From: Phycisphaera sp.
GTDB lineage: Bacteria; Planctomycetota; Phycisphaerae; Phycisphaerales; UBA1924
Assembly (NCBI GenBank): GCA_025916675.1
Contig: CP098402.1
Span: 2,723,205 to 2,787,204, forward strand
Direction: 5' to 3'
Length of the DNA stretch: 64,000 nucleotides
Each line of letters opens with the position of its first letter. Positions within the stretch are counted from its first letter, which is position 1. A model generated the notes under the pieces. That model worked only from the letters and a program-made list of their open reading frames with translations. It was not told the DNA's origin and ran no database searches. Of the stretch, positions 13,922 to 36,673 are shown one piece after another. The translations under genes and the position numbers were made by a program.

Positions 13922-14485
13922 TTATCGCTGGGCTTCCCGGTTGATCCTGGCCCTCGCCGCGCCCACCTGCTCCTCAACCACCTTTCTCACGGCGTCCCAT
14001 CCCTTCTTGTCCAGCCCTAGCTCCGTCGCCACACGCTCCGCGACGGCCCGCGGCAGCTCGTCCAGGGCCTGGCACACGACGCCGAGGGCCTCGTTCCAGT
14101 TCGACCGCACCTCGTCGACGGGCAGCAGCTCCCCCTGCATCTTCCGCAGCTCGATCACCTTCATGTTGGCGATGGCGGTCTCCTTGATCGCCCGAGCCTT
14201 GTTGTACTCCTGCTGGGTCATGCTGGGGGCTCCCGTTGGCCGTGCGTGCCAAGGCTTGGCGGTTGAGCTTCCCGGCTTGCGGCCGGCGCCCTCGCGGCGT
14301 CCGCCGTGCCCGGTGTCCAGGACGTGCTCGGCCAACCACGCCCGGCACGCGTATTCATCCCACAGCCGCGATCCATCTGGCATGTGGCCGGCCGGCGGCA
14401 TGCCGTCCTGGGCGTACTTGCGCACCGTCGACGCGGCCAGCCCCAGGCGATCGGCGAGCTGCGAGGTGGTGAGCAGGTCGGGCAT
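13922..14485 (-). CDS. Phage terminase small subunit-like protein (Nu1/TerS type)
   Basis: 187 residues. An N-terminal MerR-like/excisionase-type helix-turn-helix (TTSQLADRLGLAASTVRKYA) is followed by a Gly/Arg linker. A helical region with KARAIKETAIANMKVIELRKMQGEL follows, the pattern shared by Nu1-type small terminases, in which a Q/K-G-E-L turn follows a long helix. In phages this subunit recognises the packaging site and recruits the large ATPase/nuclease subunit. No large terminase, portal or head gene follows: the next gene downstream in its direction is the 44-codon candidate and then the oppositely oriented metal locus. This makes the gene the terminal one of the phage-type module. 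Confidence 0.68.
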   Translation of the reverse strand: MPDLLTTSQLADRLGLAASTVRKYAQDGMPPAGHMPDGSRLWDEYACRAWLAEHVLDTGHGGRREGAGRKPGSSTAKPWHARPTGAPSMTQQEYNKARAIKETAIANMKVIELRKMQGELLPVDEVRSNWNEALGVVCQALDELPRAVAERVATELGLDKKGWDAVRKVVEEQVGAARARINREAQR

Positions 14486-16822: not shown

Positions 16823-18955
16823 TTATGGAAGGGCATAGACCACCTTCCTTCTGCCCTTGGTGGGCTCGGCCCGCTCGACAAGCTGCCCGGTCTCCAGCAG
16901 GTTGTCGATGACCTCCTGCCGCTCGCGCTGGGTCAGGGCCTGCGTGCGGCGGCACAGCTCGCTGCGGCCGAGCTCTCCGCCCATCTCGCGCACGACGCGC
17001 AGCACCCGCTTCTGCCTCGCGTCGAAGACGCCCTCGGACACCCACTGCCCCGCGACGTGCAAAAGCCGCAGCGTCAGGTGCTCGCTCAGGCCGCACGCCC
17101 ACCGAGCCGCCGGCGCGTCGATCACCGCGTGCTCGCGGTTGGCCGAGCACGCGTGCAACAGGGCCAGCCGGCAGGCCTTCTCCTCGGCCCGGGCCCACGC
17201 GGCCGACACGCTGCCCGGGGCGCCCTCCATGCGGGCGTCGACCGTCGCGGCCAGCGCGTCGAAGATCGCTCGGGCTTCCCTCGTCGTTTCGATCAGGCGC
17301 GGCTGTGGGTGCTCGCGGGCCAGGTTCCCGCCGGGGATGTGCTCGTGCCACCACTGGGCCGCCTGGACCACCGACGCGGGCGCGTCGCGCTGCGTGGCCC
17401 AGCGGCGCGCCGGCCGCTCGTCGGTCTCGAAGACCAGCAGACGGGCCGCGAAGCCGTCGGCCAGGCTCTCGGTGGTCAGCGACTGGTAGAAGTGCTCGAA
17501 GACCGTCGTGCCGTAGACGATCACGCACGGCTGGTCGATGACCTTGTTGCGCTTGGGGTCGGCGTAGGCCTTGCCGCGGTACACCGTGTCGGCGCTCGAG
17601 TAGAGCTTCATCAGCGCCGTCAGCACGTTGTACAGGTGCGGGGCCCGCTTGGGGTCGCCGATGGTCCGCAGAAAGCGGCCGAACTCGTCCATCTGGAAGA
17701 GCACCGCGGGCTGGGCCTCGACGGCGCTGAACAGCCCCGCGTCCGAGGCCAGGTCCTCGTTGCCCTCCAGGTCGATGGCGCCCGCCTCGAAGAGGATCGC
17801 CTTGTTCACCTTGCGGGCGTGGTCCTTGCCCGCGCCCGAGTCGGCCACGCCCACGGCGTAGAGGTTCGTGCGGTTGCCCAGGGCGTCGCGCACCTTGCGT
17901 GCGGCCAGCACGGCCTGCAGGCACAGCGCCCCAGCAAGCGCCAGCACCGGCTGGGGCCGCTTGGCGGTCTCGAGGTTGAACCGCACGACCTCGCCGACGA
18001 AGCCGGGTACATCGAGCAGGTGCTCGGGGATCGGTCCGGGATCGGCGTGGACGATATGACGCGGCGTTGCCGTGAGCGCAGACAAGTCAACCGCAGTATG
18101 CAGCTCGTCGCGCTTCGCCTCCAGCAGCCACCCACGTGGGCGCTCGTGCGGCTTGCTCGTCGCGTCATCGATCTTGTGTTGGAGCTCCCGCTCGGTCCAC
18201 GACGGCTCGCACCGCGGGTTGTACCGTGTGGTGAGCAGGTGCAGTGCGACATCGGGTGCCAGCGCGAAGCCGTGGACGAGGGCGGTGGCCGCCGCGTAGG
18301 TCTGGTTGTGGCCACCGCTGCCGGCGATGGCGGGGGGCATGGCGTCGAGGTACGCGGCCGCGCGACGCTCGGCGTCGTCGTGGGGTGTGGTGGTGGTGGG
18401 AGCGCTCCGAGGTGTCTCGATGTTGCTACGCCGCTCGCGCACCGCGTTGGCCAGAGCACCCACGCACGCGGCAAGCATCGCAGCGGGCACCGTGACCGGC
18501 TCGCCCTCGAGCACGTCGTACCGCTCGCCGCTCGGATGCACACTGGGGCCGACCACCGTCTGGCATCCGGCCGACCGCAGCTCGATGATCATGTCCCCAC
18601 CAGCATCGGTGTGCTTCGCGGTGGTCGCGCCCTCGGCGACGTACCACCGGTGCGAGCCCGGCCGCCCCTCGCGCCCCGTCACCGCGTTCGTCGCAGGCAG
18701 GTACTGGTCCGCCAGCTCGACCGCCTCGTCGCAGTCCAGGTCGACGTCCACCAGCCAGCCGCTGGGCTCGCCGAGGATCAGGCCGATGTTGCACTCGCCT
18801 TGGAACTTCGACGCGAGTTCGTGCTCGTCCAGTCGAAGCGCCGGCCATCGCTTGAGCGTTGGCGCCTTCGCGCTGGCGGAGATCGGCACCACGCGCCAGC
18901 CGCGACGCGTGTACGCGATGGCCGCTTCGAGCGGGGTTGGGAGCGTCGCGGCCAT
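16823..18955 (-). CDS. Bifunctional Prim-Pol primase with DUF3987 helicase-like domain
   Basis: 710 residues. The N-terminal ~170 residues are an archaeo-eukaryotic Prim-Pol domain: CNIGLILGEPSGWLVDVDLD contains the catalytic Asp pair (residues 70 and 72), with SHRWYVA after it. The central and C-terminal part matches DUF3987 (GVADSGAGKDHARK P-loop-like turn near residue 375, then FQMDEFGRFL), a replicative-helicase-like ATPase domain of phages and plasmids. Together they would start and prime replication of the element. The start overlaps the helicase gene stop by one base, so the two genes are coupled. The last ~70 residues form a winged-helix-like tail. Confidence 0.85.
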   Translation of the reverse strand: MAATLPTPLEAAIAYTRRGWRVVPISASAKAPTLKRWPALRLDEHELASKFQGECNIGLILGEPSGWLVDVDLDCDEAVELADQYLPATNAVTGREGRPGSHRWYVAEGATTAKHTDAGGDMIIELRSAGCQTVVGPSVHPSGERYDVLEGEPVTVPAAMLAACVGALANAVRERRSNIETPRSAPTTTTPHDDAERRAAAYLDAMPPAIAGSGGHNQTYAAATALVHGFALAPDVALHLLTTRYNPRCEPSWTERELQHKIDDATSKPHERPRGWLLEAKRDELHTAVDLSALTATPRHIVHADPGPIPEHLLDVPGFVGEVVRFNLETAKRPQPVLALAGALCLQAVLAARKVRDALGNRTNLYAVGVADSGAGKDHARKVNKAILFEAGAIDLEGNEDLASDAGLFSAVEAQPAVLFQMDEFGRFLRTIGDPKRAPHLYNVLTALMKLYSSADTVYRGKAYADPKRNKVIDQPCVIVYGTTVFEHFYQSLTTESLADGFAARLLVFETDERPARRWATQRDAPASVVQAAQWWHEHIPGGNLAREHPQPRLIETTREARAIFDALAATVDARMEGAPGSVSAAWARAEEKACRLALLHACSANREHAVIDAPAARWACGLSEHLTLRLLHVAGQWVSEGVFDARQKRVLRVVREMGGELGRSELCRRTQALTQRERQEVIDNLLETGQLVERAEPTKGRRKVVYALP

Positions 18956-20637
18956 CAGAACGGGATCTCATCGTCAGGGATCGCGAGCACGAGTTCGGGC
19001 GCTACGTCCGGGTCGTCCAGCCGCGCGGGCTTGGGGCCAAGCTCGCTGGCGACGATGCGGTCGAACTTCTCGCCAGCCACGCGGCGCACGGTGATGCGGC
19101 TCGGCTCGGCCAGGGCACCTGCGTTGGCTAGCTCGACGGCCCCTTCGGCGTCGCCGGGCGCGGGCTCGTGCGAGCGCAGAAGCCACCAGTCGACCGCCTT
19201 CGATCGTGCGTAGCCGCCGTGGCCGATGGCGATCCACTCGCTGACGGTCTCCGTAAGCGACACGTGGTAGTCGACCCGCATCGTCGGCGGGGCATCGGGC
19301 TTGCGGCGGCTGTGGTGTACCCTATAGCTCACCGACTGTACCTCGTGCTCGTGCTCGCTCGCCTGCCCGGTCAGAATGCCCGCGTCGCTCGCCTCGATCC
19401 CATGCTGTGTCCGCTCGGGCTCCGGGAAGGCGTGGCCGCACTCGGGGCACTCCCGGCATCCGGTGGCGACCAGCTCGTTGCACGCGGGGCACTCTTTCGC
19501 CGGAGGCGGGCCACCGCTCTGCCCGGGACGCTTGGCCGACAGCGCATCGACCGGGCCGTGCCGCAGCACGTTGCCCGCGAAGTCGAGCACCAGGCAGTCG
19601 GCCTTGCCCGGCGACAGGCGAAACCCCCGCCCGACCATCTGGTAGTACAGCCCGCAGCTCATCGTCGGCCGCAGCAAGGCGACGCAATCGACGTGCGGGG
19701 CGTCGAAACCCGTGGTCAGCATGTTCACGTTGGCGAGGTAGCGCAGATCACCCGATCGAAACCGCCCGATCAACTCGTCACGCTCTGCTGGCGGCGTCTT
19801 CGAGCACACGAAGCCGCACTCGATGCCGTGCCGCTCGGCCAGCACGCGGGCCACGTGTCGCCCGTGCCGCACGCCACTCGCGAAGATCAGCGTCGCTGCC
19901 CGGTCCCGCGTCTGATCGGCGATCTCGGCGCAGGCCCCATCGACCAGCGAGGCCTCATCCATCATCGCCTCGGTCTCGCCCGCGATGAACTCCCCGCCGC
20001 GGACGTGCAACGAGCTAACGTCCGCCCGCGTCGCGCCGGCGCGAGTGCGCAGCGGCGAGAGGTACCCATCGCGGATCAGCTCGGCTACTCCGATCTCGTA
20101 GCACACGTCGCTGAGCACGTGGCCGTCGCCGCACAAGGGCCCACCCTTCAAGCGGTACGGCGTCGCGGTCAGGCCCACCACCCGCGCGTGCGGGCAGTTG
20201 GTCTTCAGGTCATTGAGGAACCGACGGTACATCCCCTCGTCGGCGTGCGGCACCATGTGCGCCTCGTCGATCAGGACGAGATCGATCGGCCCGCCCTCGG
20301 CGACCAGCTCACACGCGCGGCCGTGCACGCTCTGGATGCCCGCGATGGTCACCGGCGCGCCGAGCTCGCGTTGCTTGAGCCCCGCCGAGTAGATGCCCAT
20401 GGGCAAACCCGGCGAGACCTCGTGCAGCTTGTCCGCTGCCTGCCCGAGCAGCTCCTTCTGGTGGGCCAGGATCAGCACGCGGCCGCTCCACCCCTCCGCC
20501 ACGTCGCGGCAGATCGTCGCGATCACGGGCGTTTTGCCGCCGCCCGTGGGGATCACGACGCACGGATTCCCATCGCGATCCGTGAGGAACGCGTACGCCG
20601 CGTCGATCGCCTCGCGCTGGTAGGGGCGCAGCTCCAT
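18955..20637 (-). CDS. DEAD/DEAH-box helicase of phage replication module
   Basis: 560 residues. Superfamily 2 motifs are in order: I at PTGGGKT (residues ~30-36), II at LIDEAH, III at GLTATPY, then domain 2 with FRSGDLRYLANVNMLTTGFD (IV/V) and QMVGRGFRL (VI). After the helicase core is a zinc ribbon (CPACNELVATGCRECPECGH). The C-terminal region (VDYHVSLTETVSEWI...) resembles the tail of phage UvsW/RadD-type helicases. Likely role: branch migration or remodelling in recombination-dependent replication. It starts by TGATG overlap with rusA, so the genes from 21.5 to 16.8 kb form one operon. Confidence 0.88.
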   Translation of the reverse strand: MELRPYQREAIDAAYAFLTDRDGNPCVVIPTGGGKTPVIATICRDVAEGWSGRVLILAHQKELLGQAADKLHEVSPGLPMGIYSAGLKQRELGAPVTIAGIQSVHGRACELVAEGGPIDLVLIDEAHMVPHADEGMYRRFLNDLKTNCPHARVVGLTATPYRLKGGPLCGDGHVLSDVCYEIGVAELIRDGYLSPLRTRAGATRADVSSLHVRGGEFIAGETEAMMDEASLVDGACAEIADQTRDRAATLIFASGVRHGRHVARVLAERHGIECGFVCSKTPPAERDELIGRFRSGDLRYLANVNMLTTGFDAPHVDCVALLRPTMSCGLYYQMVGRGFRLSPGKADCLVLDFAGNVLRHGPVDALSAKRPGQSGGPPPAKECPACNELVATGCRECPECGHAFPEPERTQHGIEASDAGILTGQASEHEHEVQSVSYRVHHSRRKPDAPPTMRVDYHVSLTETVSEWIAIGHGGYARSKAVDWWLLRSHEPAPGDAEGAVELANAGALAEPSRITVRRVAGEKFDRIVASELGPKPARLDDPDVAPELVLAIPDDEIPF

Positions 20638-21572: not shown

Positions 21573-22364
21573 TCAGTCGGCGTTGGGTTCGGTCTCGTTT
21601 TGTTCGTCGGTATCGATGTCGGGCGTCTCGCCGCGCGCGTACGCCCGGTAGATGCGCTCGTCGAGCGGGATCTCGTCGGGCAGGTTCAGCCGGTTCTTCG
21701 CCAGGTGGCTCGGCCGCTCGGTGGTCTTGAGCACCCGTTCGCCCTGGCCGATGGCCTGCACACGCGTGCGGTCGAAGCCCTCCTTCGTGGTCTTTGTGTG
21801 GACGCGGTACGTGGCGAACAGCACCTCGTCGCACCACTCCTGGATCAGCGCCGACGCGTGGCGGTTCAGGCGCGGGCCGTAGCGGTCGTAGCTCTCGGTC
21901 TCGGGGTTGGAGAACTTCTCGATGGCCGCGTGCGCGATGAGCACGACCTGCATGCCACGCTCGCGCCGCAGGGCGTCCAGCCCGGCGAGCACCTCGCGCC
22001 AGGGTTCGAGGGCGAACACGTAACCCTTGCCGTAGCCGATGTCCTCGATGGACTGCACCTGCCGGTCGAGGCAGACCTTCGCGTGGATCAGCCGCTCGAG
22101 CCAGTCGAGGCTGTCGATGACGATGGTCTTGTAGGTGTGTTCTTCGGTGTAGAGCTCACCGAGAGCGCCGATCACCTGTTCGAGGTCGGTGGCCAGCGGG
22201 AAGCGCGGCGCGTCGATGTCCGCCAGGCCGTCCTCGGTCTGGATGAACACCGGGTCCTCGGCCATCGCCCCGAACGTGCTCTTGCCGATCCCGTGCGTGC
22301 CGTACACCAGCACGCGACGCGGCATCCGCGTGCGGCCGGTTTCGATGGATTCCAGAAGTCCCAT
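21573..22364 (-). CDS. AAA_24/Sak4-like phage ATPase (RecA-fold recombination protein)
   Basis: 263 residues. Walker A is YGTHGIGKSTFG at residues ~21-32, followed by PVFIQTEDGLADIDAPRFP; Walker B is KTIVIDSLDWLE. The C-terminal part contains GFDRTRVQAIGQGERVLKT, as in the phage nucleotide-binding AAA_24 family. These proteins are RecA-like single-strand annealing or recombination ATPases. Neighbours (nuclease upstream, DUF669 and RusA downstream) fit a complete phage homologous-recombination cassette. Confidence 0.83.
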   Translation of the reverse strand: MGLLESIETGRTRMPRRVLVYGTHGIGKSTFGAMAEDPVFIQTEDGLADIDAPRFPLATDLEQVIGALGELYTEEHTYKTIVIDSLDWLERLIHAKVCLDRQVQSIEDIGYGKGYVFALEPWREVLAGLDALRRERGMQVVLIAHAAIEKFSNPETESYDRYGPRLNRHASALIQEWCDEVLFATYRVHTKTTKEGFDRTRVQAIGQGERVLKTTERPSHLAKNRLNLPDEIPLDERIYRAYARGETPDIDTDEQNETEPNAD

Positions 22365-23629: not shown

Positions 23630-24217
23630 CTACCCGAGGTCGAGGTCCTCCAACTGCCTCGAGATCCGCTTGCGTTCGCGGTCGATCGCGTGGCGAGCCA
23701 CCGACTTCCCAGTCCGTCGCGACCACTCTCGGGCCGTCGCAGTCGAGCCGTGCGCCGCGACGTGCTCGATCAGCTCGCGGTCAGAGGCGGTAAGCCGGTC
23801 CAGTGCCAGGCCAAGATCTTCGGCCAGATCCGATGACTTCAGATCCGATCGGCTCCACAGCTCCCGCCGGCGCCGGCCATCGGCCTCAGACAAGCCTGTA
23901 GCCAGCGTGAACCCGGTCTGGCGGTCGAGTTCCTCATCGATCGAGGCCGGCTTCTGCCAGCCCCCGCGTTTGAGCGCCCGTCTGGACCGGAGTTCCATGC
24001 GGAAGCAGTTGGTAGAGATCTTGATGGCGAACGCCTCGATCGTGCCCCGGCCTGGGTCGTACCGGTGGGCGTTCGTGAAGAGCTGGATCAGGGCAAGCTG
24101 GACGAGGTCGTCCTCGTCGGCGTTACAGAGAGCGTGACGGCAGCACATGACCCTTGCCTTGGACTTGATGAGAGCACGGATGCGGGGATCGCCAACCAGC
24201 AGGTCGGGGTCGACCAT
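23630..24217 (-). CDS. Sigma-70-like RNA polymerase sigma factor (ECF type)
   Basis: 195 residues. Region 2 is seen in DEDDLVQLALIQLFTNAHRYDPGRGTIEAFAIKISTNCFR (core binding and -10 recognition), a charged linker follows, then region 4 with LDRLTASDRELIEHVAAHGSTATAREWSRRTGKSVARHAIDRERKR as the -35-binding helix-turn-helix. It stands at the head of the phage recombination/replication operon (66 bp upstream of the next gene), so it may direct transcription of that module. No anti-sigma partner is seen. Confidence 0.75.
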   Translation of the reverse strand: MVDPDLLVGDPRIRALIKSKARVMCCRHALCNADEDDLVQLALIQLFTNAHRYDPGRGTIEAFAIKISTNCFRMELRSRRALKRGGWQKPASIDEELDRQTGFTLATGLSEADGRRRRELWSRSDLKSSDLAEDLGLALDRLTASDRELIEHVAAHGSTATAREWSRRTGKSVARHAIDRERKRISRQLEDLDLG

Positions 24218-24380: not shown

Positions 24381-24410
24381 AAGACGACGGGCCGATGGGC
24401 CCGTCGTCTT
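24381..24410 (-). terminator. Strong 13-bp hairpin between the unknown gene pair and the sigma gene
   Basis: A perfect 13-bp stem (AAGACGACGGGCC and its complement) with a 4-base loop. It lies 29 bp beyond the stop of the gene ending at 24439. No clean T run follows, so it may be a terminator or a strong RNA structure insulating the two minus-strand units. The rest of 24218-24438 shows no gene. Confidence 0.55.
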
Positions 24411-24438: not shown

Positions 24439-25407
24439 TTATGAGACTTGATGAAACTTTGTGGCCCTGTCGCGGGGACTCGACGCGACACGCCTGGAGA
24501 CGGACGCGGAGTCCTCCGAACGCATGACTTCGTCTGGGCCGCCGTTTCGTAGAACCGCCCGACGGACACGGTCCTTGGAGATCGGGCGTTTCAGCGCCTC
24601 GGTGAGCAACGTTCCCGCCTTGCGATAGGAGCCAGTCTCGCGATAGGCCCGCAAGAAGACCTCATCGGTGAGCTCGTTCTTCACGACCGAGTGGACCGCT
24701 TGCTCGATCACCTGCTTACGCATCGCGGGGTCCGTCGGAACAAAACTGCGTGCCTCGGCCGCCTGGTCGGCTTCGTCCACGGCTGCCAAGATCGCCTCCG
24801 CATCCAGCACCATCTGGCCATCTTCGACGCGGGCCACTTCCGCGAGCGTCAAGACGGCCGGGATCGCGCCAGGCCAGATCCGCTCGTCCGGCACGGTGTC
24901 GGGAACCAGCACGATGGCCCGTCCTCCCGGTCCTAAGTGGTTGGCGATCGCTCGGCCGTCCTCGGCCTCTAGCCCAACAGCAAGGACCAAGTTGCGATTC
25001 TGGCCGGAGACCTTCAACGTCCCCACTCGCCAATACCGCTGTTCGACCACAGACTTCGCCCGCCCCTTGGGATTGAGCGCTCGGGCGACCGCTTGCGCCA
25101 GCCCCTCGGGGTTTGGTCGCCATCCCTTGGTCATGTTCTCGGTGATCTCGACGCGAAGGAATTGCGGGCAAGCGATGAACAGCCGTCGGTGGCCACCCTC
25201 GTCCTCGAAGACCTCGACCGGCTCGACGTGCCAGTCGTCGCATTCGGGGCAGGTGACCTCCACCGTGGTCCCTGCCACGAGCAAGCCCAACGAGGCCATA
25301 GTTTCCGCGCCATCCTCTGGCCAGTCCTCCACCTCGTGGTAGTCAAAGAACGCCGTCGGCTCACCCATCGACGATAACAGCACGGCGAATAGCTCGTCGA
25401 AAGTCAT
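24439..25407 (-). CDS. Unrecognised 322-residue protein with zinc pair and C-terminal HTH
   Basis: No family recognised. The N-terminal ~70 residues are acidic and predicted helical (MTFDELFAVLLSSMG). A VTCPECDDWHVE motif and a later IACPQ may form a zinc site. A central domain has strands (LVLAVGLEAEDGRAIANHL, GRAIVLVPDT). Near residues 240-285 a helix-turn-helix-like segment is visible (VFLRAYRETGSYRKAGTLLTEAL). The tail is Ser/Arg-rich. Its ATG overlaps the stop of the upstream 390-residue gene (ATGA), so the two products are probably made together. The location beside a restriction-modification operon makes a defence or regulatory role plausible, but this is only context. Confidence 0.65.
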   Translation of the reverse strand: MTFDELFAVLLSSMGEPTAFFDYHEVEDWPEDGAETMASLGLLVAGTTVEVTCPECDDWHVEPVEVFEDEGGHRRLFIACPQFLRVEITENMTKGWRPNPEGLAQAVARALNPKGRAKSVVEQRYWRVGTLKVSGQNRNLVLAVGLEAEDGRAIANHLGPGGRAIVLVPDTVPDERIWPGAIPAVLTLAEVARVEDGQMVLDAEAILAAVDEADQAAEARSFVPTDPAMRKQVIEQAVHSVVKNELTDEVFLRAYRETGSYRKAGTLLTEALKRPISKDRVRRAVLRNGGPDEVMRSEDSASVSRRVASSPRDRATKFHQVS

Positions 25408-26576
25408 TGGCTAACCCCCCACTCCCTGAGGCACCACTCGCCGATCTCGCGGTCTTCGTCTGGCTTGCTCTTGAGCGTGCAACCGTTGGGACTGCTGACG
25501 TCGAAGCTCATCGTTCGGGCCCGCCTCTTGAAACCGGGTGCAAACTTCAGCTCGAAAGTCACGCGGGCCACACGCGACCGCACGCCACACAACCCAACCT
25601 CTTGCAGCTTCTGGTAAGCTCGAATGATCGACAGGTCGTGATCGCGCGAATCGGCAGACAACTCGATGTATCCGCTGCGGCCACGAGTCCGAATCCGGAC
25701 TCGTCGAATCCGAGCACGCTGAACGCCATGCGCAGGATTGAACTTCAGAGGCTGGGAATCTTGGAGCAGATGATCGAGGGCGTAGGTCGGCCGCGCCACC
25801 TCGCGATACCGGATCTGCTTGTGGTACACCGTCTCACAGAAGATGCCATGCAAATCAGTGAGGAGTTGTGCTCCGCCGTGGGACCATATCTCCAACACGC
25901 CCTTCTGGGGCTCCAGACTGAACACGATCTGGAACGCCATTCGCGCATGGAGCGGTTCAGGCAGCCGTGCATCCTCGGGATAGATCAGATGGGTTTCTGC
26001 ATAGTCGTCCAGATACGCAAAGAAGTACTCGATGCCTTGACGATGCAAGTGATTGACAACACAATAGCGACCGCGGAGTTGTGTCTTACGGAAGTGTGCT
26101 GCCAATCTCTCGCCCAAGCTCTCTTTAAGGGCATCGTCAATCTTGACGGCACACGTTGGCAGACCCGTGGCCTTGTGCCAGTACTGTTGCTGGGCGAGAG
26201 CGTCGGCGTGCACAAACATCGCGACCTCTTGGAACCGCGACGGGCTCTTGAGGTACAGCCACAGGGCCTTGCTCTGGCTGGACTTCAAGCGATCGAATTG
26301 CTTTTGCTCTTCGACCGGGTGGCTCTGCACTTCCTCGATGACCGCGGTGAGGTTGTTTCGGCCTGCGATGTCATGGATCTGCCTGAGGACGACCTCGACC
26401 TCGACCCTGCGCCGGGCGGGCATCCGCTCGACCACTATGAAGAAATGTTTTGGAGTACTCACACCCAGGAGATCGGCGGAGCTCAGATCCACTTCGCTGC
26501 ACTGCTTGAGGAAGGAGCACAGCAGGTTGATGTCGCACTGGCTTACGGTTCGCTCAGGATCAAAGGCAGCCGCCAT
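25404..26576 (-). CDS. Unrecognised 390-residue protein, first gene of a two-gene unit
   Basis: No family recognised. The sequence is soluble-looking, mixed alpha/beta, with many His and Arg residues (WHKATGLPTC, GRYCVVNHLHRQGIEYFFAYLDDY, FSLEPQKGVLEIWSHGG) and no obvious P-loop, nuclease or transmembrane motif. The C-terminal third (RIRRVRIRTRGRSGYIELSADSRDHD, then VTFELKFAPGFKRRARTMSFDV) is strand-rich and basic, which could suit nucleic-acid binding. Codon choice is less GC-rich than in the phage module to its left. It is transcribed divergently from hsdM and co-translated with the 322-residue gene. Confidence 0.68.
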   Translation of the reverse strand: MAAAFDPERTVSQCDINLLCSFLKQCSEVDLSSADLLGVSTPKHFFIVVERMPARRRVEVEVVLRQIHDIAGRNNLTAVIEEVQSHPVEEQKQFDRLKSSQSKALWLYLKSPSRFQEVAMFVHADALAQQQYWHKATGLPTCAVKIDDALKESLGERLAAHFRKTQLRGRYCVVNHLHRQGIEYFFAYLDDYAETHLIYPEDARLPEPLHARMAFQIVFSLEPQKGVLEIWSHGGAQLLTDLHGIFCETVYHKQIRYREVARPTYALDHLLQDSQPLKFNPAHGVQRARIRRVRIRTRGRSGYIELSADSRDHDLSIIRAYQKLQEVGLCGVRSRVARVTFELKFAPGFKRRARTMSFDVSSPNGCTLKSKPDEDREIGEWCLREWGVSQ

Positions 26577-26892
26577 CGAGATCTCCGTGATGTCACCCGT
26601 CGCTCAAGAACACACCCCTTCGCCACTGCCATCCATCGCAGCATTCGATGATACCCCGTGAGCCAAGAGGCATTGCGCTTCGCAACATGTCGGTTGTAGA
26701 CCACCGCCAAGATCGGATGACGACTCCGCGAGCAAGGGGACCTGGCCATTACCGGCGACCCAAGGCTTGCGTCGCCCCTGTCCAATCCGCTACCCGATCT
26801 CGGGGTAAGAAGACCTCTGACCCAGCGACAAGCCGCCAATTGCTGGAAGCGGGGCCTGCCCGAAGGCCGCCACCCCGCAACAATGCCAACGC
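26577..26892. other. 316-bp divergent intergenic region, no gene seen
   Basis: Separates the minus-strand unknown pair from the plus-strand hsdM operon and must hold both promoters. No clear -10/-35 pair, tRNA, repeat or hairpin was found by eye. Short open frames across it have no coding character. Confidence 0.5.
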
Positions 26893-28578
26893 ATGAGCAC
26901 CAAACCATCCCCGAGCACCGACCTCGACTACGCCGACACCCTCTGGAAGGCCGCCGACGCCCTGCGCGGCCAGGTCGACGCGGCGGAATACAAGCACGTC
27001 GTGCTCGGCCTGCTGTTCCTGAAGTACATCAGCGACTCGTTCGAGTCGCGCCGCGACGAGCTCAGGGCCGAGCTTGAGAAGGACGGCATCAAGGGGGAGC
27101 AACTCGAAGGGCTGCTCGAAAGCCGCGACGAGTACACCGCCGAGCGGGTGTTCTGGGTGCCGCCCGAGGCCCGCTGGCCCAACCTCCAGAACCAGGCCAC
27201 GCGGGCCGACATCGCCACGCTGATCGACGACGCCATCCTCGCCGTCGAGCGCGACAACCCCGCATTGAAGAGTAAGCTCCCCCGCGACTACGCCCGCCGC
27301 GGCATCGCGCCCGAGAAGATGAAGGCCCTGATCGACCTGATCGCCGACATCGGCTTCAAGGGCGAGCGGGCCAAGGCCCGCGACACGCTCGGCCGCGTCT
27401 ACGAGTACTTCCTTGGCAAGTTCGCCCAGGCCGAGGGCAAGCTGGGCGGCGAGTTCTACACGCCGCGGTGCGTAGTGCGGCTGCTGGTCGAGATGCTCGA
27501 GCCGTATAGCGGCCGGGTGTACGACCCGTGCTGCGGCTCGGGCGGCATGTTCGTGCAGTCCGAGCGCTTCGTCGAGGTCCACGGCGACCGCGACGACATC
27601 TCGATCTACGGGCAGGAGAGCAACCCCACGACGTGGCGGCTGGCCCACATGAACCTGGCCATCCACGGCATCGAGGCCAACCTGGGCAAGCAACCCAGCG
27701 ACACGTTCCTGCGCAACGCCCACCCGGACCTCAAGGCCGACTACATCCTGGCCAACCCGCCATTCAATGTTTCCGATTGGTCGGGCCAGTTGCTAGAGGG
27801 CGACGCCCGCTGGCAGTACGGCACGCCGCCCAAGGGCAACGCCAACTACGCGTGGATCCAGCACTTCATCCACCACATGGCCCCGCCCAACGGCAAGGGC
27901 GGCGGCGTGGCCGGCTTCGTCATGGCCAACGGCTCGCTCTCCAGCAACAGCGGCGGCGAGGGCGAGATCCGGCGGAACATCGTCGAGGCCGACCTGGTCG
28001 ACGCCATCGTGGCGCTGCCGGCGCAGCTCTTCTACACCACGGGCATCCCGGTGTGCCTGTGGTTCCTGACGCGGGACAAGACGGGCAAGAACCTGCCGAA
28101 TGGCGGGCGGGATCGCACGGGCGAGACGCTGTTCATCGACGCCCGCAAGCTGGGCGCGATGCAGACGCGCACCCTTCGAGTCCTCACCGGCGGCGACGAG
28201 GGCGAGACGATGCTGGCCGACGGCCTGGGCGACCCCAACCACGACAGCGACCTGGGCCGCATCGCCTACACCTTCCGCCAATGGCGCGGCGAGCCGGCGC
28301 CCAAGTGGTGGAAGGCCAAGACGCACGGCGAATGGAAGTATGCCGACATCCCCGGCTTCTGCAAGAAAGCCACCATCCCCGACATCGACGAGCACGGCTC
28401 CGTGCTCACGCCGGGGCGGTACGTGGGGGCCGAAGAGCAGGAGGAGGACAGCGAGCCGTTCGAGGTGAAGTACCCGCGGCTGGTGGCGGAGCTTGAGGCG
28501 TGCTTTGCGGAGGGGGAGCGGTTGACGGGGGTGATCCGAGAACGGCTTACGCACGTCGGCGCCTCGAAAGAGACCTAG
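26893..28578 (+). CDS. hsdM: Type I restriction-modification DNA methyltransferase subunit
   Basis: 561 residues. The N-terminal helical HsdM_N domain ([30 protein letters not shown]) is followed by the N6-adenine methyltransferase core: SAM motif DPCCGSGG at residues 211-218 and catalytic NPPF at 288-291. It modifies adenines in the bipartite target set by HsdS and is required for both modification and cleavage complexes. It opens a five-gene operon: hsdM, a cyclase-like gene, hsdS, an Abi_C gene, hsdR. The gene is strongly GC-rich, in contrast to the genes inserted after it. Confidence 0.93.
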
Positions 28579-28581
28579 CCA

Positions 28582-29508
28582 ATGGAGTCTAACACTACAC
28601 CTAACATTCCCGCGACGCCATTGCACACAGTCGAGGTGTGTGATCACATCGTCTGCCTGCTCGACCTATTAGGTCAAAAACACCATCTCACGGATTGGTC
28701 CGTTATGCCTTTGGATGACGTCCTCACAGACTCCATGAAGGACGCTATCTACAAAACGGCAGACATCATCTGGCACTATCGGCACCAGCTCACTCACTAT
28801 GCGAACGAGTTCAACAAGCCTACGATTCCGAAAGAACTAATCTCGACACTGCCGGTAGAACAGCAGGATTTCTATTACCGCGTCCGCGACACGAGGCTGC
28901 GCACCCAGCAATTCTCGGATACATTTCTTGTATACGCCCCGCTGCAAACCTCTAAACGTGAACGCACTGTGCTTCCCGTATTTGGAGTGTTGTTTGGCTG
29001 TTGCCTGACAATGCTGCAATCTTTAGCCAGTGGCATCCCAGTCCGAGGAGGTATCGACGTAGGTGTTGGCATTGAGCTAAGCGAGTCCAATTTTTATGGC
29101 CCGAGTCTAGCGACAGCCCACTATCTTGAGAACAAGATTGCGAGGTATCCACGTATTGTTGTCTGCGAGAATGCTGTTTCTATGCTGGACGCCATTATCG
29201 ACGGCACAAGCCACTTCATTGGTCAGGATGAACTGCTGAACGAAATAAGTCGACGGGCTGCGGAGGATTGCCGCGCCCTGCTCACCCAGGATGACGATGA
29301 AGAATGGATCATCGACTACCTTGGACCTCATGTGTCTGAAGTGTTCAAACGTCTTCCGATCGAACCGCTGGAGATGAACACTCTTCGCATGTCCGCACAC
29401 GCCTTTGCTCAAAAGGAACTAGCCCGCTTTCAACAACTTGCCGACGAGACCCATGCCGCGCGGTACTCTAGGTTATGTGCATACTTCGTCAGACGAGGGT
29501 TGGAATGA
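28582..29508 (+). CDS. Class III nucleotidyl-cyclase-like domain protein inside the type I R-M operon
   Basis: 308 residues, 3 bp after hsdM and overlapping hsdS (ATGA). The pattern fits a divergent class III adenylate/guanylate-cyclase-like fold: a first strand with IVCLLDLLGQKHHL (Asp28, first metal-binding position), RTQQFSDTFLVY (Asp113, second metal-binding position), VRGGIDVGVGIE (155-164), NFYGPSLATAHYLENKIARYP (170-190) and RIVVC. The last part matches the VyGpxlxxAxxLE segment of cyclase domains. The C-terminal ~90 residues are helical without a known domain. It could make a cyclic nucleotide as an alarm signal, as Pycsar cyclases do, or be a catalytically silent sensor. No typical Pycsar effector adjoins it, but an Abi_C gene lies two genes downstream. 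The gene is distinctly more AT-rich than hsdM. Confidence 0.62.
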   Translation: MESNTTPNIPATPLHTVEVCDHIVCLLDLLGQKHHLTDWSVMPLDDVLTDSMKDAIYKTADIIWHYRHQLTHYANEFNKPTIPKELISTLPVEQQDFYYRVRDTRLRTQQFSDTFLVYAPLQTSKRERTVLPVFGVLFGCCLTMLQSLASGIPVRGGIDVGVGIELSESNFYGPSLATAHYLENKIARYPRIVVCENAVSMLDAIIDGTSHFIGQDELLNEISRRAAEDCRALLTQDDDEEWIIDYLGPHVSEVFKRLPIEPLEMNTLRMSAHAFAQKELARFQQLADETHAARYSRLCAYFVRRGLE

Positions 29509-30833
29509 CCACGGGAGAGTGGACAATACGGCGCCTCGGGGACTTGGTCTCAATCAAACACGGGTGGCCGTTCAAGAGCGAGTACTTTTCCGACGAGCTC
29601 ACTGGACGACCGATCGTTGTTGCGGTCGGCAATTTCAGATACGACGGCGGATTCAGATTTGGAGAGACTGCGATAAAGGAGTACCGGGGAGCGTATCCGG
29701 ATGAGTACAGACTCGAAGCCGGCGACATTGTCCTGATCATGACCTGTCAAACACAAGGCGGAGAGATCCTTGGAGTACCGGCGACGATACCTGACGACGG
29801 CAATATATACCTGCACAATCAGCGTCTGGGCAAAGTAGCGGTCAAAGAGCCGGGGCTCATCGATAGACGATTCCTCTTTCATGTTTTCAAGTCCTACACC
29901 TTTAATGCTGAACTGTGTGCGACTGCGTCCGGTTCAAAGATTCTCCACACAGCCCCAACTCGCATCGAGGCGTTTGAGTTCGCGTGCCCTCGGCTAGACG
30001 AGCAGGTCGCCATCGCTAGCGTGCTTGAGGCACTGGACGACAAGATCGAGCAGAACCGGCGAACGGCGCTGGCGCTCGAGCGGCTGGCGCGGGCGATCTT
30101 CCGGGCGTGGTTTGTGGACTTCGAGCCCGTGAAAGCCAAGGCCGCCGGCGCCGCCTCATTCCCCTCCATGCCCCAGCCCGCCTTCGACGCCCTGCCGACC
30201 CGCCTGGTCGATTCGGCCATCGGGCCGGTGCCGGAGGGGTGGGAGTTGAAGTCGTTGGCCGAGGCGTGCCAGATCGTGAGTGGCGGCACGCCCAAGCGGT
30301 CCGTGGCATCGTACTGGGGTGGCGAGGTACCTTGGTATTCCGTCAAGGATGCACCAGCCGAAGGTCAACCGTGGGTCATCCATACTGGCGAATCAATCAC
30401 GGACGACGGAGTCGCAAATAGCACCGTGAGAATCGTCCCGAAGGGCGCGACAATCATCTCGGCCCGCGGAACCGTTGGCCGTCTCGCGATGGCCGGGCGG
30501 AGTATGGCATTCAACCAATCGTGCTATGGGCTGCTTCCACCCGACGGCAAAAGCTTCGGCTACATCTACTTGTTGCTGCAAACCGCTGTAGACCGCCTGC
30601 AACAACGCACGCATGGCTCTGTGTTTGAGACGGTAACTCGGTCCACTTTCGAGGGTATCGATGTCGTGGCGCCGGAGCCCTCGGTACTATTGTCCTTCGG
30701 CCAAGTGGTCACGCCCCTCTTGGAGCTCTTACACGCTCTGGAAGTTGAGTCATCGAAGCTTGCGGACATGCGAGACTATTTGCTGCCCAGACTTCTGACT
30801 GGGCAAGTGAGAGTCGGAGAGTCGCATGGCTGA
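29505..30833 (+). CDS. hsdS: Type I restriction-modification specificity subunit
   Basis: The start at 29505 overlaps the previous stop (ATGA) and begins MTTGEWTIRRLGDLVSIKHG; a frame start 30 bp earlier would add ten unlikely residues. The product has 442 residues with the usual HsdS plan: TRD1 (~1-165), the central conserved helix (LDEQVAIASVLEALDDKIEQNRRTALALERLARAIFRAWFVDFEPVKAK), TRD2 starting GWELKSLAEACQIVSGGTP, and the C-terminal helix ending DMRDYLLPRLLTGQVRV. The two TRDs read the two halves of the bipartite DNA target. Base composition switches inside the gene: TRD segments are AT-richer, the central conserved segment is GC-rich. Confidence 0.92.
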   Translation: MTTGEWTIRRLGDLVSIKHGWPFKSEYFSDELTGRPIVVAVGNFRYDGGFRFGETAIKEYRGAYPDEYRLEAGDIVLIMTCQTQGGEILGVPATIPDDGNIYLHNQRLGKVAVKEPGLIDRRFLFHVFKSYTFNAELCATASGSKILHTAPTRIEAFEFACPRLDEQVAIASVLEALDDKIEQNRRTALALERLARAIFRAWFVDFEPVKAKAAGAASFPSMPQPAFDALPTRLVDSAIGPVPEGWELKSLAEACQIVSGGTPKRSVASYWGGEVPWYSVKDAPAEGQPWVIHTGESITDDGVANSTVRIVPKGATIISARGTVGRLAMAGRSMAFNQSCYGLLPPDGKSFGYIYLLLQTAVDRLQQRTHGSVFETVTRSTFEGIDVVAPEPSVLLSFGQVVTPLLELLHALEVESSKLADMRDYLLPRLLTGQVRVGESHG

Positions 30834-31550
30834 TCGATTAACCGCACAGTCATTTCAGATGCATGGAGCACGACATGCTTTCGCCGATGGTCCATTCGTC
30901 GAGCCGATCGAACAACAGCTAGCTGCAATTGAGCAATCCATCGTCAGCGTGCCGGACTTCGCCTTCGATTTGTCAAAGACACTCGTAGAGTCTGTGTGCA
31001 AGACAATTCTCGCTGACATCGGTCAGCCGGCCGACCCTAATTGGGATTGCCCACGCTTACTCAAGGAGACAACCAACCGACTCTCACTGCTCCCTGCCGA
31101 GTATCCAAACCCGGCAAAGCCCAGGGAGTCGATTGAGAAGACTCTACGAGGCCTGCTACAAACCATCCAGGGGCTTTGCGAGCTTCGGAACAACTTTGGT
31201 ATGGCCTCGCACGGCCGCGACGGCCACGGCAGGCGACTCGACTTGCGGCAAGCTACTTTGGCGGCGCAAGCCGCCGATACGATCGCTGCTTTTATTTATC
31301 GAATGCACAGGGATAGCGCTTCGCGGTCGCCTGGAGCAAGAGTTTACTATGAGGATCATTCGGAGTTCAACACGTGGCTAGATGAAGAGAATGAGCTCAT
31401 CGACATCGGAACGGTCACACTACAGCCGAGTAGGGTTCTGTTCCATATGGACGTTGAAGCATACAAAACTGCGGTGAACGACTACTTGGCGGACAAGCAA
31501 GGAACTGGCGAAAAAGGCCAGTCCTCAACCAACAGCACCGAGGATGCTCC

Positions 31551-31554
<4 letters not shown>
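30826..31554 (+). CDS. Abortive-infection family protein with Abi_C-type domain
   Basis: 242 residues, overlapping the end of hsdS by 8 bp and the hsdR start by 4 bp. The key signature is LCELRNNFGMASHGRDGHGRR at residues ~117-137, followed by a helix (LRQATLAAQAADTIAAFIYRM). This matches the abortive-infection C-terminal domain (RN..G..HG, then an Ala-rich helix). The first ~110 residues are helical (FDLSKTLVESVCKTILADIG). The tail is Ser/Thr/Asp-rich. Family knowledge: Abi_C proteins accompany phage-defence genes; the biochemical activity is unclear, and RN..H motifs recall HEPN-type RNases (inference). The gene is AT-richer than hsdR. Confidence 0.78.
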
Positions 31555-34637
<3,083 letters not shown>

Positions 34638-34643
34638 TCGCTG

Positions 34644-35090
34644 CTACGTCGAACTCGTAGTTAGGCATTTTCTCCACATCGCTCTCTGACGTGACCAGTC
34701 CGTCACCTGAGTGATCGCCCTCGTGTGTCGCTCGGTGACCGGATCCCGTCCCTCCGCCACGACCGGCAGAAACAGGACCTCTTCCTGGATATCAGGCGCT
34801 AGGTGCAGCAGATTCATGATCTGCGTCATCCGCGGTTGCGTAACTCGAGCGAGATGGGCCAGCTCGGTCAGGTTGTCGACTACACCGTCGCGGAGAAGAC
34901 CGTCATAGCGGATCGCAAGGGCCATGAGGCGTGACACCCGCGGCACTCGGCCAACCGGGGCGTCTGGGGCCCCGCCACTGGCCAGAGGGGTACTCCCCGG
35001 ATCATGATCTGGCTCAAGCGATGAGCCGACGACGGCCCGCTTGCGGTGCCCCTTGACGGCGAAGTGGATCTGGCGGGTCACCGTGGTCAT
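34644..35090 (-). CDS. Recombinase-associated HTH/ParB-like DNA-binding protein
   Basis: 148 residues from the ATG at 35090, overlapping the recombinase stop (ATGA). A basic N-terminus (QIHFAVKGHRKRAVVG) and a Pro/Gly linker precede RVSRLMALAIRYDGLLRDGVVDNLTELAHLARVTQPRMTQIMNLLHLAP, a clear helix-turn-helix. Proteins of this build commonly follow large serine recombinases and DUF2924 genes in bacterial islands. Possible role: transcriptional control or a directionality partner of the recombinase (inference). It converges with hsdR, with six bases between stops. Confidence 0.75.
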   Translation of the reverse strand: MTTVTRQIHFAVKGHRKRAVVGSSLEPDHDPGSTPLASGGAPDAPVGRVPRVSRLMALAIRYDGLLRDGVVDNLTELAHLARVTQPRMTQIMNLLHLAPDIQEEVLFLPVVAEGRDPVTERHTRAITQVTDWSRQRAMWRKCLTTSST

Positions 35091-36673
35091 GCCGCGTCTC
35101 CGAGTATGCGGTCGATGAGGGCACGGATGCTCGTTGGGCGGAACGTTACCGAGACGCTCTGGGCCTCGGCGTCGTACTCCACCACGCTGATCAGCAGTCG
35201 CAGCAGCCGGGCCTGCTCGCGAGGGATCAGATTCTGCCAAAGTAGTTCGAAGTCGGCGAATGCCGCCGATGCCTCCTCCGGGCCGATGCTCTCTCGCCCG
35301 AGCTCGGCGAGCCGCTCTTCGACCGCGGGCAATCGGTTCTGGGCATCGCTCAGACGCTCGTGGAGTTCTGCAATGCGTGCGGAGACCTCCGTGGTGGCGG
35401 CGCCGTCGGAGGCCAGCCGTCGAAGCTCGCGATCGTGCTGGGAGAGCTCCCGTCTCAGCCCATCACGTTCGGCTTTGGCCGCTTCAATGTCAGCCCCCAC
35501 CGCGGTTTGGGCATCGGCCAGCACTCGCACAAGCAGATCCCGGTCGTTGGCTAACCCACGGATCTCGTCGATGACGACCCGCTCGATTTCTGCTGCCGGC
35601 AATGTCCCGGAAGGACATGAGCCCGCCCCACGCTTCATGGCCCGAACGCAGCGGTAGTAGCGGTACGACTTTCCGTTGCGGCCGCCGGTAAAGGTGTGGG
35701 ACATCGAGTGATCGCAGCACTTGCACCGAAGCAGGCCTCGGAGCAGCGCACCATACTTGTTGCGCACCTCGACCCCTCCGGTTCGGCCGTTGTGCTTCAG
35801 CAAGGCCTGAACCCGATCGAACACCTCGCGGTCGATGATGGGCTCGTGCTCGCCGTCGTACACATCCCCCTTGTGGCAAATCTTGCCAACGAACACGGGG
35901 TTGGTCAGCAGTACATACAACGTGGCCTTGTCGAAGGGTCGGCCGCCGAGGTGTTTGCCTTTCTTTGTGATGCGTCGCTTGTTGGGCCACTGGCGATGGG
36001 CGAGCTCGCTGGCCACCGTGAGCAAAGACTCCTTGGCCAAGTACAACTTGAAGATCTCGCGGACTCTGGCCGCCTCCTTTGCGTTGATCACTAGCCGCGG
36101 GCTTGGACCGGACCGATCGACGTCGTAGCCCAGAACCGGCACGCCACCCGCCCACTTACCCCTGCGCTTCTGGGCCGCGATCTTGTCGCGGATGCGCTCT
36201 CCGATGATCTCACGCTCGAACTGGGCGAAGGACAGCAGGATGTTCAGCGTCAGTCGTCCCATCGAGCTGGTGGTGTTGAACTGCTGCGTCACCGAAACGA
36301 ACGAGACGCCATTGCGATCAAACGTTTCCACGATCCGGCTGAAGTCCATGAGAGATCGGCTTAGGCGATCGACCTTGTACACCACGACACAATCGATCTT
36401 GCCCGCTTCCACATCTCGGAGAAGCCGGTCGAGCGCCGGCCGCTCCATGCTGCCACCAGAGAATCCGCCATCGTCGTAGCGGTCGGGCAGACACGTCCAG
36501 CCCTCGGCCTTCTGGCTGGCAACGAACGCCTCGGCGCTCTCCCGCTGGGCGTCGAGCGAGTTGAATTCCTGGTCTAACCCCTCCTCGCTGCTCTTTCGGG
36601 TGTAGATGGCGCATCGCACCCCTGGCCTTGGCTTGCCAGCCCCCGCGTCGCTCTTCTGACGAGAAGTTCTCAT
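35087..36673 (-). CDS. Large serine recombinase/integrase
   Basis: 528 residues. The resolvase catalytic domain begins CAIYTRKSSEEGLDQEFNSL, with the probable nucleophile Ser28, then DRYDDGGFSGGSMERPALDRLL and VVYKVDRLSRSLMDFS. The recombinase domain (GGVPVLGYDVD...) is followed by a zinc beta-ribbon (CKCCDHSMSHTF ... YRCVRAMKRGAGSCPSG) and a long coiled coil (~390-460, KAERDGLRRELSQHDRELRRL). All conserved parts are intact. It would integrate and, with a partner, excise the element. Its stop and start overlap both flanking genes, making a tight operon. Confidence 0.9.
   Translation of the reverse strand: MRTSRQKSDAGAGKPRPGVRCAIYTRKSSEEGLDQEFNSLDAQRESAEAFVASQKAEGWTCLPDRYDDGGFSGGSMERPALDRLLRDVEAGKIDCVVVYKVDRLSRSLMDFSRIVETFDRNGVSFVSVTQQFNTTSSMGRLTLNILLSFAQFEREIIGERIRDKIAAQKRRGKWAGGVPVLGYDVDRSGPSPRLVINAKEAARVREIFKLYLAKESLLTVASELAHRQWPNKRRITKKGKHLGGRPFDKATLYVLLTNPVFVGKICHKGDVYDGEHEPIIDREVFDRVQALLKHNGRTGGVEVRNKYGALLRGLLRCKCCDHSMSHTFTGGRNGKSYRYYRCVRAMKRGAGSCPSGTLPAAEIERVVIDEIRGLANDRDLLVRVLADAQTAVGADIEAAKAERDGLRRELSQHDRELRRLASDGAATTEVSARIAELHERLSDAQNRLPAVEERLAELGRESIGPEEASAAFADFELLWQNLIPREQARLLRLLISVVEYDAEAQSVSVTFRPTSIRALIDRILGDAA

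What the first reader, a model, noticed from the sequence alone, without database searches (positions are those of the whole stretch)
24439..26576. Unrecognised two-gene unit divergent from the R-M operon
A 390-residue and a 322-residue protein are linked by an ATGA overlap, followed by a strong hairpin, and sit in the cargo zone of a mobile element next to restriction genes. The second has a CxxC site and an HTH-like region; the first has a basic strand-rich C-terminus. Neither matches a family known to me. Their pairing and location make them candidates for a new defence or counter-defence system.
Basis: inference. Interest (0 to 1): 0.72.

Follow-up and report, generated by a model that had tools for sequence, protein, structure and literature searches.

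The report
Phage immunity-region DNA-clamp gene pair
Two linked genes in a prophage remnant of a planctomycete-type bacterium encode a predicted DNA-gripping protein, shaped like a protein of our own chromosome-segregation machinery and like bacterial RdgC, plus a partner with a likely zinc site; they recur in the part of many phage genomes that holds anti-virus genes, so they are a good but untested candidate for a new defence module.

Summary
In detail: A (25404-26576 -, 390 aa) and B (24439-25407 -, 322 aa) overlap by ATGA and diverge from a type I R-M operon. They are one unit: all 24 of 101 searched genomes that have A also have B, and A-B distances correlate at r=0.92, against 0.28-0.59 for A with neighbouring genes. 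No Pfam, PADLOC or NCBIfam family matches credibly. The predicted fold of A ranks CENP-N/Chl4 and RdgC in all 16 top places, the fold published for lambda RexA. B has no predicted membrane segment, a conserved Cys/His cluster and varied C-terminal regions. In relatives the common order is integrase, variable defence cargo, XRE repressor, ImmA protease, A, B, sigma factor, replication genes: a temperate-phage immunity region, where lambda and CarolAnn carry rexAB. Best reading: a rex-like, DNA-damage-controlled exclusion module with a soluble partner in place of the RexB channel. Fold and linkage are computed; DNA binding, control and defence are inferred. The window copy lacks repressor and protease and lies in a truncated prophage. 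A non-defence role in phage recombination or lysogeny is the main rival. New variant of a known kind.

The parts
25404..26576 (-). Gene A, 390 aa, CENP-N/RdgC-like predicted fold (inferred DNA clamp)
   Evidence: phrog_37634 E=6e-24
24439..25407 (-). Gene B, 322 aa, N-terminal winged-helix-like part with Cys/His cluster, alpha-beta domain, C-terminal HTH-like part
24381..24410 (.). Strong hairpin after B, no T-run
26577..26892 (.). Divergent intergenic region between A and hsdM; the place where many relatives carry XRE and ImmA genes, not seen here
23630..24217 (-). Sigma-70 family factor gene that follows B here and in many relatives
   Evidence: Sigma70_r2 E=3e-9
26893..28578 (+). hsdM of the type I R-M cargo
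29475..30833 (+). hsdS
31551..34637 (+). hsdR (label from operon position and sequence, not scanned)
   Evidence: inference
16823..18955 (-). Prim-Pol/DUF3987 replication gene of the prophage core
18955..20637 (-). ResIII/Helicase_C helicase of the prophage core
21573..22364 (-). AAA_24 (PF13479) ATPase of the prophage core
13922..14485 (-). Terminase small subunit, left end of the prophage remnant
   Evidence: phrog_57 E=1.7e-23
35087..36673 (-). Serine integrase

Best explanation
A-B is a rex-like exclusion module in the immunity region of a family of temperate phages of planctomycete-type bacteria. A is a DNA clamp of the RdgC/RexA/CENP-N fold (fold predicted; DNA binding inferred). B is its soluble partner with a likely zinc site, a winged-helix-like N-terminus and an exchangeable C-terminal HTH-like region, serving as sensor, adaptor or effector where RexAB has a membrane channel (inferred). 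In many relatives the pair is read with an XRE repressor and an ImmA/IrrE protease of the CapH/CapP type, and often behind a restriction operon, so that DNA damage or a failed restriction attack would cleave the repressor and raise A-B as a second line of defence (inferred from the CapHP and CapKS precedents). In the window copy the repressor and protease are missing; its control is unknown.
For: One unit: B occurs in all 24 genomes with A among 101; coding overlap in 84 of 86 adjacent A-B pairs, duplicates included; distance correlation A-B 0.917 over 63 loci, 0.89 over 31 common loci against 0.585 (A-sigma) and 0.283 (A-AAA), 0.953 against 0.572 (A-HsdR) over 14. Fold: model pLDDT 86.5, pTM 0.68; the 16 best PDB hits are chain N of inner-kinetochore complexes (CENP-N/Chl4) or RdgC (prob 0.93-1.00), later listed rows have prob 0.20 or less; CENP-N/Chl4 Z up to 9.6 over A 58-261. 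Context: ImmA directly upstream in 43 of 81 deduplicated loci, all 43 with HExxH; XRE-ImmA-A contiguous in 31; of the 30 of these with a further gene in view, that gene is same-strand hsdR in 13, hsdS in 3, HmaC in 1, type III RE in 1, all within 25 nt. Type I R-M or Hma genes in 45 of 69 loci with three or more upstream genes; PADLOC hits for 7 of 10 chosen proteins meant to cover other loci. 65 virus contigs encode A; order integrase-cargo-XRE-ImmA-A-B-sigma-replication; a terminase large subunit on one such contig. Precedents: RexA has the RdgC fold (PMC11077077, passages); CarolAnn repressor-RexA-RexB; a regulator pair sandwiched between R-M and DUF4747/CarolAnn operons (PMC13373217, passages).
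Against: No defence assay exists. B shows no membrane segment, so the RexB step is absent. No A protein matches DUF4747 or RdgC profiles, and hhalign found no significant link to RexA or RdgC, though it also missed RexA-RdgC and lambda RexA-CarolAnn RexA. TM-scores are low (0.22-0.49 in the 16 best rows). The RdgC match by VIA-align (Z 7.4, rmsd 9.8) is tied with unrelated adaptin-appendage rows (Z 7.1, 6.9). The window copy and many relatives lack XRE-ImmA. Of 17 loci without the phage core and with three or more downstream genes, 8 have R-M or Hma genes and one more CRISPR genes; the rest have none that I found. Closeness to defence is partly a property of the phage cargo slot, not of A-B.
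Confidence: 0.5

Rival explanations
1. A-B is a phage housekeeping pair: an RdgC-like clamp and its partner that control the phage's own recombination and replication genes (AAA_24 ATPase, exonuclease, helicase, Prim-Pol) or the lysis-lysogeny decision; its place beside defence cargo is incidental.
For: The pair is constant and lies directly before the sigma factor and the replication/recombination genes; RdgC modulates RecA (PMC11077077 passages); six virus loci (L222, L242, L243, L244, L249, L263; L242-L244 look alike) have integrase-XRE-ImmA-A-B without cargo in the listing.
Against: In some loci without the phage core A-B still sits beside defence genes: Hma (L058, L134, L141), type I R-M (L056, L122, L132), IetS and PDC-S11 (scanned in L141, same clusters in L132), CRISPR I-G (L052); A coevolves weakly with the AAA gene (r 0.28).
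Confidence: 0.3
2. Counter-defence: A-B coats or clamps incoming phage DNA to shield it from host nucleases or restriction.
For: Predicted DNA-clamp fold; position among early phage genes.
Against: Lies in the repressor-protease operon in 31 loci, an arrangement of lysogenic expression in lambda and CarolAnn, not of immediate-early anti-restriction; also found outside the phage core beside defence genes.
Confidence: 0.08
3. A-B is an accessory subunit pair of the type I R-M system.
For: Same-strand order HsdR-XRE-ImmA-A with gaps of a few nucleotides in 13 loci.
Against: The same pair sits beside Hma, type III R-M, Druantia, BREX and CRISPR genes and A-HsdR correlation (0.57) is much weaker than A-B (0.95).
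Confidence: 0.04
4. A-B is a DNA segregation or stability module, in which A and B mark a site as CENP-N/L do at centromeres.
For: CENP-N-like fold over A 58-261; DNA-binding-type parts in B.
Against: No motor ATPase in the pair; the element carries an integrase.
Confidence: 0.05

Closest known systems
Lambda RexAB, CarolAnn gp44/gp43, Sbash gp30/gp31
   Same: A two-gene unit of phages, in lambda and CarolAnn next to the lysogenic repressor; RexA has the RdgC fold (PMC11077077, passages); CarolAnn order repressor-RexA-RexB near a serine integrase; Sejanus RexA lies near an IrrE-like gene
   Different: B shows no membrane helices but a Cys/His cluster and HTH-like parts; no A protein matches DUF4747
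RdgC
   Same: Foldseek prob 0.96-0.99; VIA-align over A 125-390, Z 7.4
   Different: No sequence-profile match; RdgC profile hit only 1 of 61 genomes searched, weakly
CENP-N/Chl4 (with CENP-L/Iml3)
   Same: Predicted fold over A 58-261, helical domain plus beta domain (Z up to 9.6)
   Different: Eukaryotic inner-kinetochore protein; no sequence match; function unrelated on the face of it
RdgC-histone operon of Halobacteria and Bacillus (PMC11390915, passages read)
   Same: RdgC-like protein with extra N- and C-terminal domains, partner with a winged-helix domain
   Different: That partner has a transmembrane domain and a histone gene leads the operon
CapH/CapP- and CapK/CapS-controlled immune operons (PMC13373217, passages read)
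   Same: XRE plus zinc protease of CapH/CapP type between an R-M operon and a downstream pair in relatives
   Different: Downstream pair is A-B; control not tested; regulator pair absent in the window copy

Membership tests
RexAB exclusion systems | First protein with RdgC/RexA fold | tested here: inconclusive
   CENP-N and RdgC fold found; RexA itself not compared directly
RexAB exclusion systems | DUF4747 sequence profile in RexA | tested here: not met
   none of 66 A proteins matches any Pfam family at E<=0.01
RexAB exclusion systems | Second protein is a membrane protein with several transmembrane helices | tested here: not met
   B best 19-residue hydropathy 1.18 against 2.39 for lambda RexB and 2.07 for CarolAnn gp43; 13 of 88 B family members exceed 1.6 and were not examined further
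RexAB exclusion systems | Expressed with the prophage repressor | tested here: inconclusive
   XRE-ImmA-A contiguous on one strand in 31 of 81 loci; not so in the window copy; expression not measured
RexAB exclusion systems | Excludes other phages | not testable with these tools
   needs plaque assays
RdgC (PF04381) | RdgC sequence profile | tested here: not met
   no Pfam match in 66 A proteins; hhalign negative but insensitive
RdgC (PF04381) | RdgC fold | tested here: inconclusive
   Foldseek prob 0.96-0.99 for three RdgC chains, E 1e-3 to 5e-3; VIA-align Z 7.4 and 6.2, rmsd 9.8 and 9.2 A, tied with unrelated rows
RdgC (PF04381) | Ring dimer that binds dsDNA and inhibits RecA | not testable with these tools
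   needs biochemistry
CENP-N/Chl4 | Helical N-terminal domain joined to the beta domain | tested here: met
   A 58-261 on CENP-N/Chl4, Foldseek prob up to 1.00, Z up to 9.6 with rmsd 5.4 A
CENP-N/Chl4 | Sequence profile | tested here: not met
   no Pfam match for any of 66 members
CapHP-controlled immune operon | XRE repressor and zinc protease genes directly upstream | tested here: not met
   not in the window copy; search of its genome with one ImmA found none, without a positive control in that call, and with one XRE only two weak hits elsewhere. In relatives met: 43 of 43 ImmA proteins with HExxH; PADLOC capP E=2.7e-16 and capH E=5.5e-10 for L041
CapHP-controlled immune operon | ssDNA-activated cleavage of the repressor | not testable with these tools
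   needs biochemistry

The most novel reading that the evidence does not exclude
A is a bacterial counterpart of the CENP-N architecture: it joins a CENP-N-like helical plus beta part (A 58-261) to an RdgC-like body (A 125-390), and it works with a dedicated second DNA-binding partner in phage immunity regions. The inner-kinetochore DNA clamp CENP-N/CENP-L would then descend from phage and mobile-element DNA clamps used in defence, and A-B would be a new class of DNA-damage-triggered second-line immunity.
Probability: 0.15. Interest if true: 0.85.

Novelty: new variant of a known kind. Interest (0 to 1): 0.6.

Why it matters
If right, it adds a rex-like module with a soluble partner to the known phage-exclusion systems, shows a phage family that keeps a fixed regulator-clamp unit beside an exchangeable defence slot, and gives bacterial material for testing where the CENP-N/CENP-L fold of kinetochores came from. 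It also gives a practical marker: the genes next to XRE-ImmA-A-B in these phages are a place to look for defence systems.

Tried and rejected
Family scans of A and B gave only chance hits (BIR E=0.25 for B; nothing). tblastn of A against 50,697 phage records found nothing, and single-sequence scans of viral contigs found nothing; an alignment query later found 65 loci. The PDB by sequence gave nothing credible. hhalign of the A profile against RdgC, RexA and CarolAnn-type RexA was negative, except a collinear match to the C-terminus of a single lambda RexA sequence (P=0.047) that vanished with four RexA sequences; I give it no weight. Positive controls of that test failed too, so it is insensitive. 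DUF4747 rang in 0 of 151 genomes and in none of 14 control genomes, so that search shows nothing. Lambda RexA is not among the 50 rows listed. For B, a PD-(D/E)XK-like arrangement over residues 99-221 (best Z 5.8) was considered and not claimed: the Z is within what the tool calls common arrangement, only two columns of 97-199 are mostly acidic (139, which is N in the window copy, and 150), and no lysine is among the columns conserved in 40 or more of 53. In the Tenderia plasmid the gene after A gave no BLAST match to the B family. A clean empty site was sought and not found: G002 and G005 share the left flank only up to 13497, and G004 carries a related remnant there. Phage major capsid PF05065: 0 of 11 virus records, which may be fragments. 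Small 'A-like' ORFs beside integrases are an unrelated integrase-neighbour ORF joined to the cluster by a fusion in L126. Gene calls and clusters are my own simple caller and single-linkage BLAST clusters, named from scanned representatives, so gene counts are approximate; the 81 loci are those left after removing A proteins under 340 aa and those sharing an identical C-terminal 150 residues.

Full report
Observation. The two ORFs are at the stated coordinates, overlap by ATGA and diverge from hsdM. Full-length homologues with open frames at up to 38% (A) and 44% (B) identity show them to be genes. The hairpin after B is strong (z -6.4) but lacks a T-run.

One unit. In 101 genomes (the window's own and 100 relatives) A occurs in 24 and B in 26; all 24 with A have B, and two have partial B matches only. 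A scan of one genome per species gave 78 further loci, mostly Planctomycetota MAGs, some the same contigs as; others bear names such as Nevskiales, Vicinamibacteraceae, Deltaproteobacteria, Cyanobacteria, Streptosporangiaceae, Smithella and Acidimicrobiia, which may be binning errors. Outside them are the isolate Nitrosospira multiformis, where A looks broken, and the plasmid of Candidatus Tenderia electrophaga, which has A and an adjoining gene at B's place that gave no BLAST match to B. Phylum-wide, 15 of 294 genomes have A, so it is sporadic, as mobile genes are. After removing duplicates and short pieces 81 loci remain, B being the next called gene in 64; misses include contig ends and gene-caller errors. 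A and B overlap in 84 of 86 adjacent pairs, duplicates included (27 by 14 nt, 26 by 8 nt). Distance matrices of A and B correlate at 0.917 (63 loci); over the same 31 loci A-B is 0.89, A-sigma 0.585, A-AAA 0.283; over 14 R-M loci A-B is 0.953, A-HsdR 0.572. No permutation of 500 reached the A-B values; that also holds for A with sigma, ImmA and HsdR, so the size of r, not its significance, sets A-B apart.

What A is. No Pfam family fits any of 66 A proteins at E 0.01; PHROG 37634 (unknown function) fits A at 6e-24. The AlphaFold2 model from 66 sequences has pLDDT 86.5 and pTM 0.68. Foldseek against the PDB gives chain N of inner-kinetochore complexes (CENP-N by name in four rows; the rest taken as CENP-N/Chl4 from the chain letter and recall) and RdgC in all of the first 16 ranks (E 5e-4 to 1.4e-2, prob 0.93-1.00); the other rows listed have prob 0.20 or less. 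VIA-align gives Chl4/CENP-N Z 9.6 (179 residues, rmsd 5.4) over 58-261, above the 7 to 8 that the tool calls usual for unmatched models; RdgC has Z 7.4 (219 residues, rmsd 9.8) over 125-390, tied with adaptin-appendage rows at 7.1 and 6.9. TM-scores are low (0.22-0.49), as bent multi-domain models can give. In the viral library the five best hits are phage proteins of 277-373 aa with prob 0.85-1.00; three are uncharacterised, one is named recombination-associated protein, one exonuclease. The shared fold of RdgC, RexA and IML3/CHL4 is published (PMC11077077, passages; PMC4080450, passages). That A binds DNA is inferred from that fold.

What B is. pLDDT 87.6, residues 299-322 below 50. The predicted elements at the N-terminus suggest a winged helix followed by a ribbon with C53, C56, H60 and C80 conserved, hence a likely zinc site; the first-ranked solved chain is 2x5c (prob 0.95-0.99, but E 0.04). 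The middle alpha-beta domain has no firm match. The C-terminal region differs between subfamilies, as swapped DNA-binding parts would. No membrane helix is seen by hydropathy in the window copy; 13 of 88 family members pass the crude 1.6 mark, and I did not examine them.

Where it sits. In relatives the common order is integrase, cargo, XRE, ImmA, A, B, sigma factor, AAA_24 ATPase, small genes (RusA and SSB labels are recalled or guessed), helicase, Prim-Pol, ParB-methyltransferase. XRE and ImmA of L041 match capH and capP of PADLOC. ImmA lies directly before A in 43 of 81 loci, all with HExxH; XRE-ImmA-A is contiguous in 31; in the 30 of these with a further gene, that gene is same-strand HsdR in 13, HsdS in 3, HmaC in 1 and type III RE in 1, all within 25 nt, divergent HmaA in 4 or DruE in 1, and something else in 7. 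Of 69 loci with three or more upstream genes 45 have type I R-M or Hma genes. For nine of the other loci (L079 standing for L075) I scanned 10 proteins: Cas8e (L036), type III R-M (L041, two), a partial JetC-like match (L049), a GajB-like helicase (L069), DruE (L079) and BrxC (L118); L123, L133 and L142 gave nothing. A second set of 10 gave CRISPR I-G Cas1 and Cas3 (L052), IetS and PDC-S11 (L141), a weak HmaC (Tenderia plasmid) and a weak RTasDnaG-like hit (L131); four Tenderia proteins gave nothing. The remaining loci without a named defence gene were not scanned. For scale, HsdM_N has 65 listed matches in 101 genomes of about 3-6 Mb, so a random 20-kb stretch would hold one in well under 1% of cases (my estimate); but the cargo slot itself explains much of the enrichment.

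The carrier is a phage. 65 of 67 candidate IMG/VR stretches encode A; among 62 of these in which my caller found A, B was next in 43, ImmA directly before in 26, an integrase in view in 22. One contig (L266, same record as L238) encodes a terminase large subunit. The window has the terminase small subunit at 13922-14485, the integrase at 35087-36673 and a tRNA-Met at 37832-37906; left of 13.9 kb the three ORFs scanned are RND-transporter and membrane-fusion genes. So the window holds a truncated prophage or satellite of about 23 kb. The host is taken as a planctomycete because a same-order relative (G080) has the contig length of CP050848.1, Planctomycetales bacterium ZRK34.

Mechanism. Lambda has cI-rexA-rexB, CarolAnn repressor-RexA-RexB near a serine integrase, Sejanus an HTH gene, RexA and an IrrE-like gene together. 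CapP, activated by ssDNA, cleaves CapH, and nearly 20% of capK-capS genes lie between an R-M operon and an immune operon such as CBASS or DUF4747/CarolAnn (PMC13373217, passages). The order HsdR-XRE-ImmA-A-B has the same layout. I therefore read A-B as a DNA-damage-controlled, rex-like second line. Shown here: linkage, fold prediction, gene order. Inferred: DNA clamping, control, partner role of B, defence. In the window copy I see no XRE or ImmA gene; a search of its genome with one relative's ImmA found none (no positive control in that call), so control there is unknown.

Membership and novelty. By sequence A belongs to none of DUF4747, RdgC or CENP-N; by predicted fold it falls in their common superfamily. 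The pair is not RexAB, since the membrane partner is missing. Literature searches (two searches listed only part of what they found) listed no paper that I recognised as describing this pair; only the named passages were read, and the library lacks most subscription papers. The nearest described arrangement is the RdgC-histone operon (PMC11390915, passages), with an RdgC-like protein and a winged-helix membrane protein.

Verdict. A real, recurrent two-gene unit of phage immunity regions; fold of A recognisable, pairing and setting new as far as searched; defence likely but untested.

Noticed in passing
window 30826-31554 (+): An Abi_C-domain protein (PF14355 E=2e-17; weak AbiJ in PADLOC) sits between hsdS and hsdR of the R-M operon.
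   Followed up: no
window 28582-29508 (+): A 308-aa protein between hsdM and hsdS matches only phrog_23933 of unknown function (E=2e-9).
   Followed up: no
window 13922-36673: Truncated prophage or satellite: terminase small subunit and integrase present, RND transporter genes to the left.
   Followed up: partly
L194 (G004:C19): A related prophage remnant at the same left junction in another genome of the genus, without A or B.
   Followed up: partly
window 23630-24217 (-): A phage-borne sigma-70 family factor follows B in the window and in many relatives; a second family that looks sigma-like by eye (cluster 31, not scanned) faces A in L035, L070, L077 and L083.
   Followed up: no
plasmid records; L159: Several listed plasmid rdgC genes adjoin DNA methyltransferase genes (Dam family; cytosine methyltransferase in L159).
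   Followed up: no
L192 (Mycobacterium phage Sejanus): RexA-family gene within 600 bases of an IrrE-like gene, next to an HTH gene and near the integrase.
   Followed up: no
L126 7743-9389: An ORF that joins the front part of A to an integrase-neighbour ORF, apparently by a deletion.
   Followed up: partly
L053 (G086): A second, broken copy of the unit beside pieces of HmaA, HmaB and HmaC.
   Followed up: no
window 45113-45205 (-): ARAGORN calls a tRNA with an unreadable anticodon.
   Followed up: no
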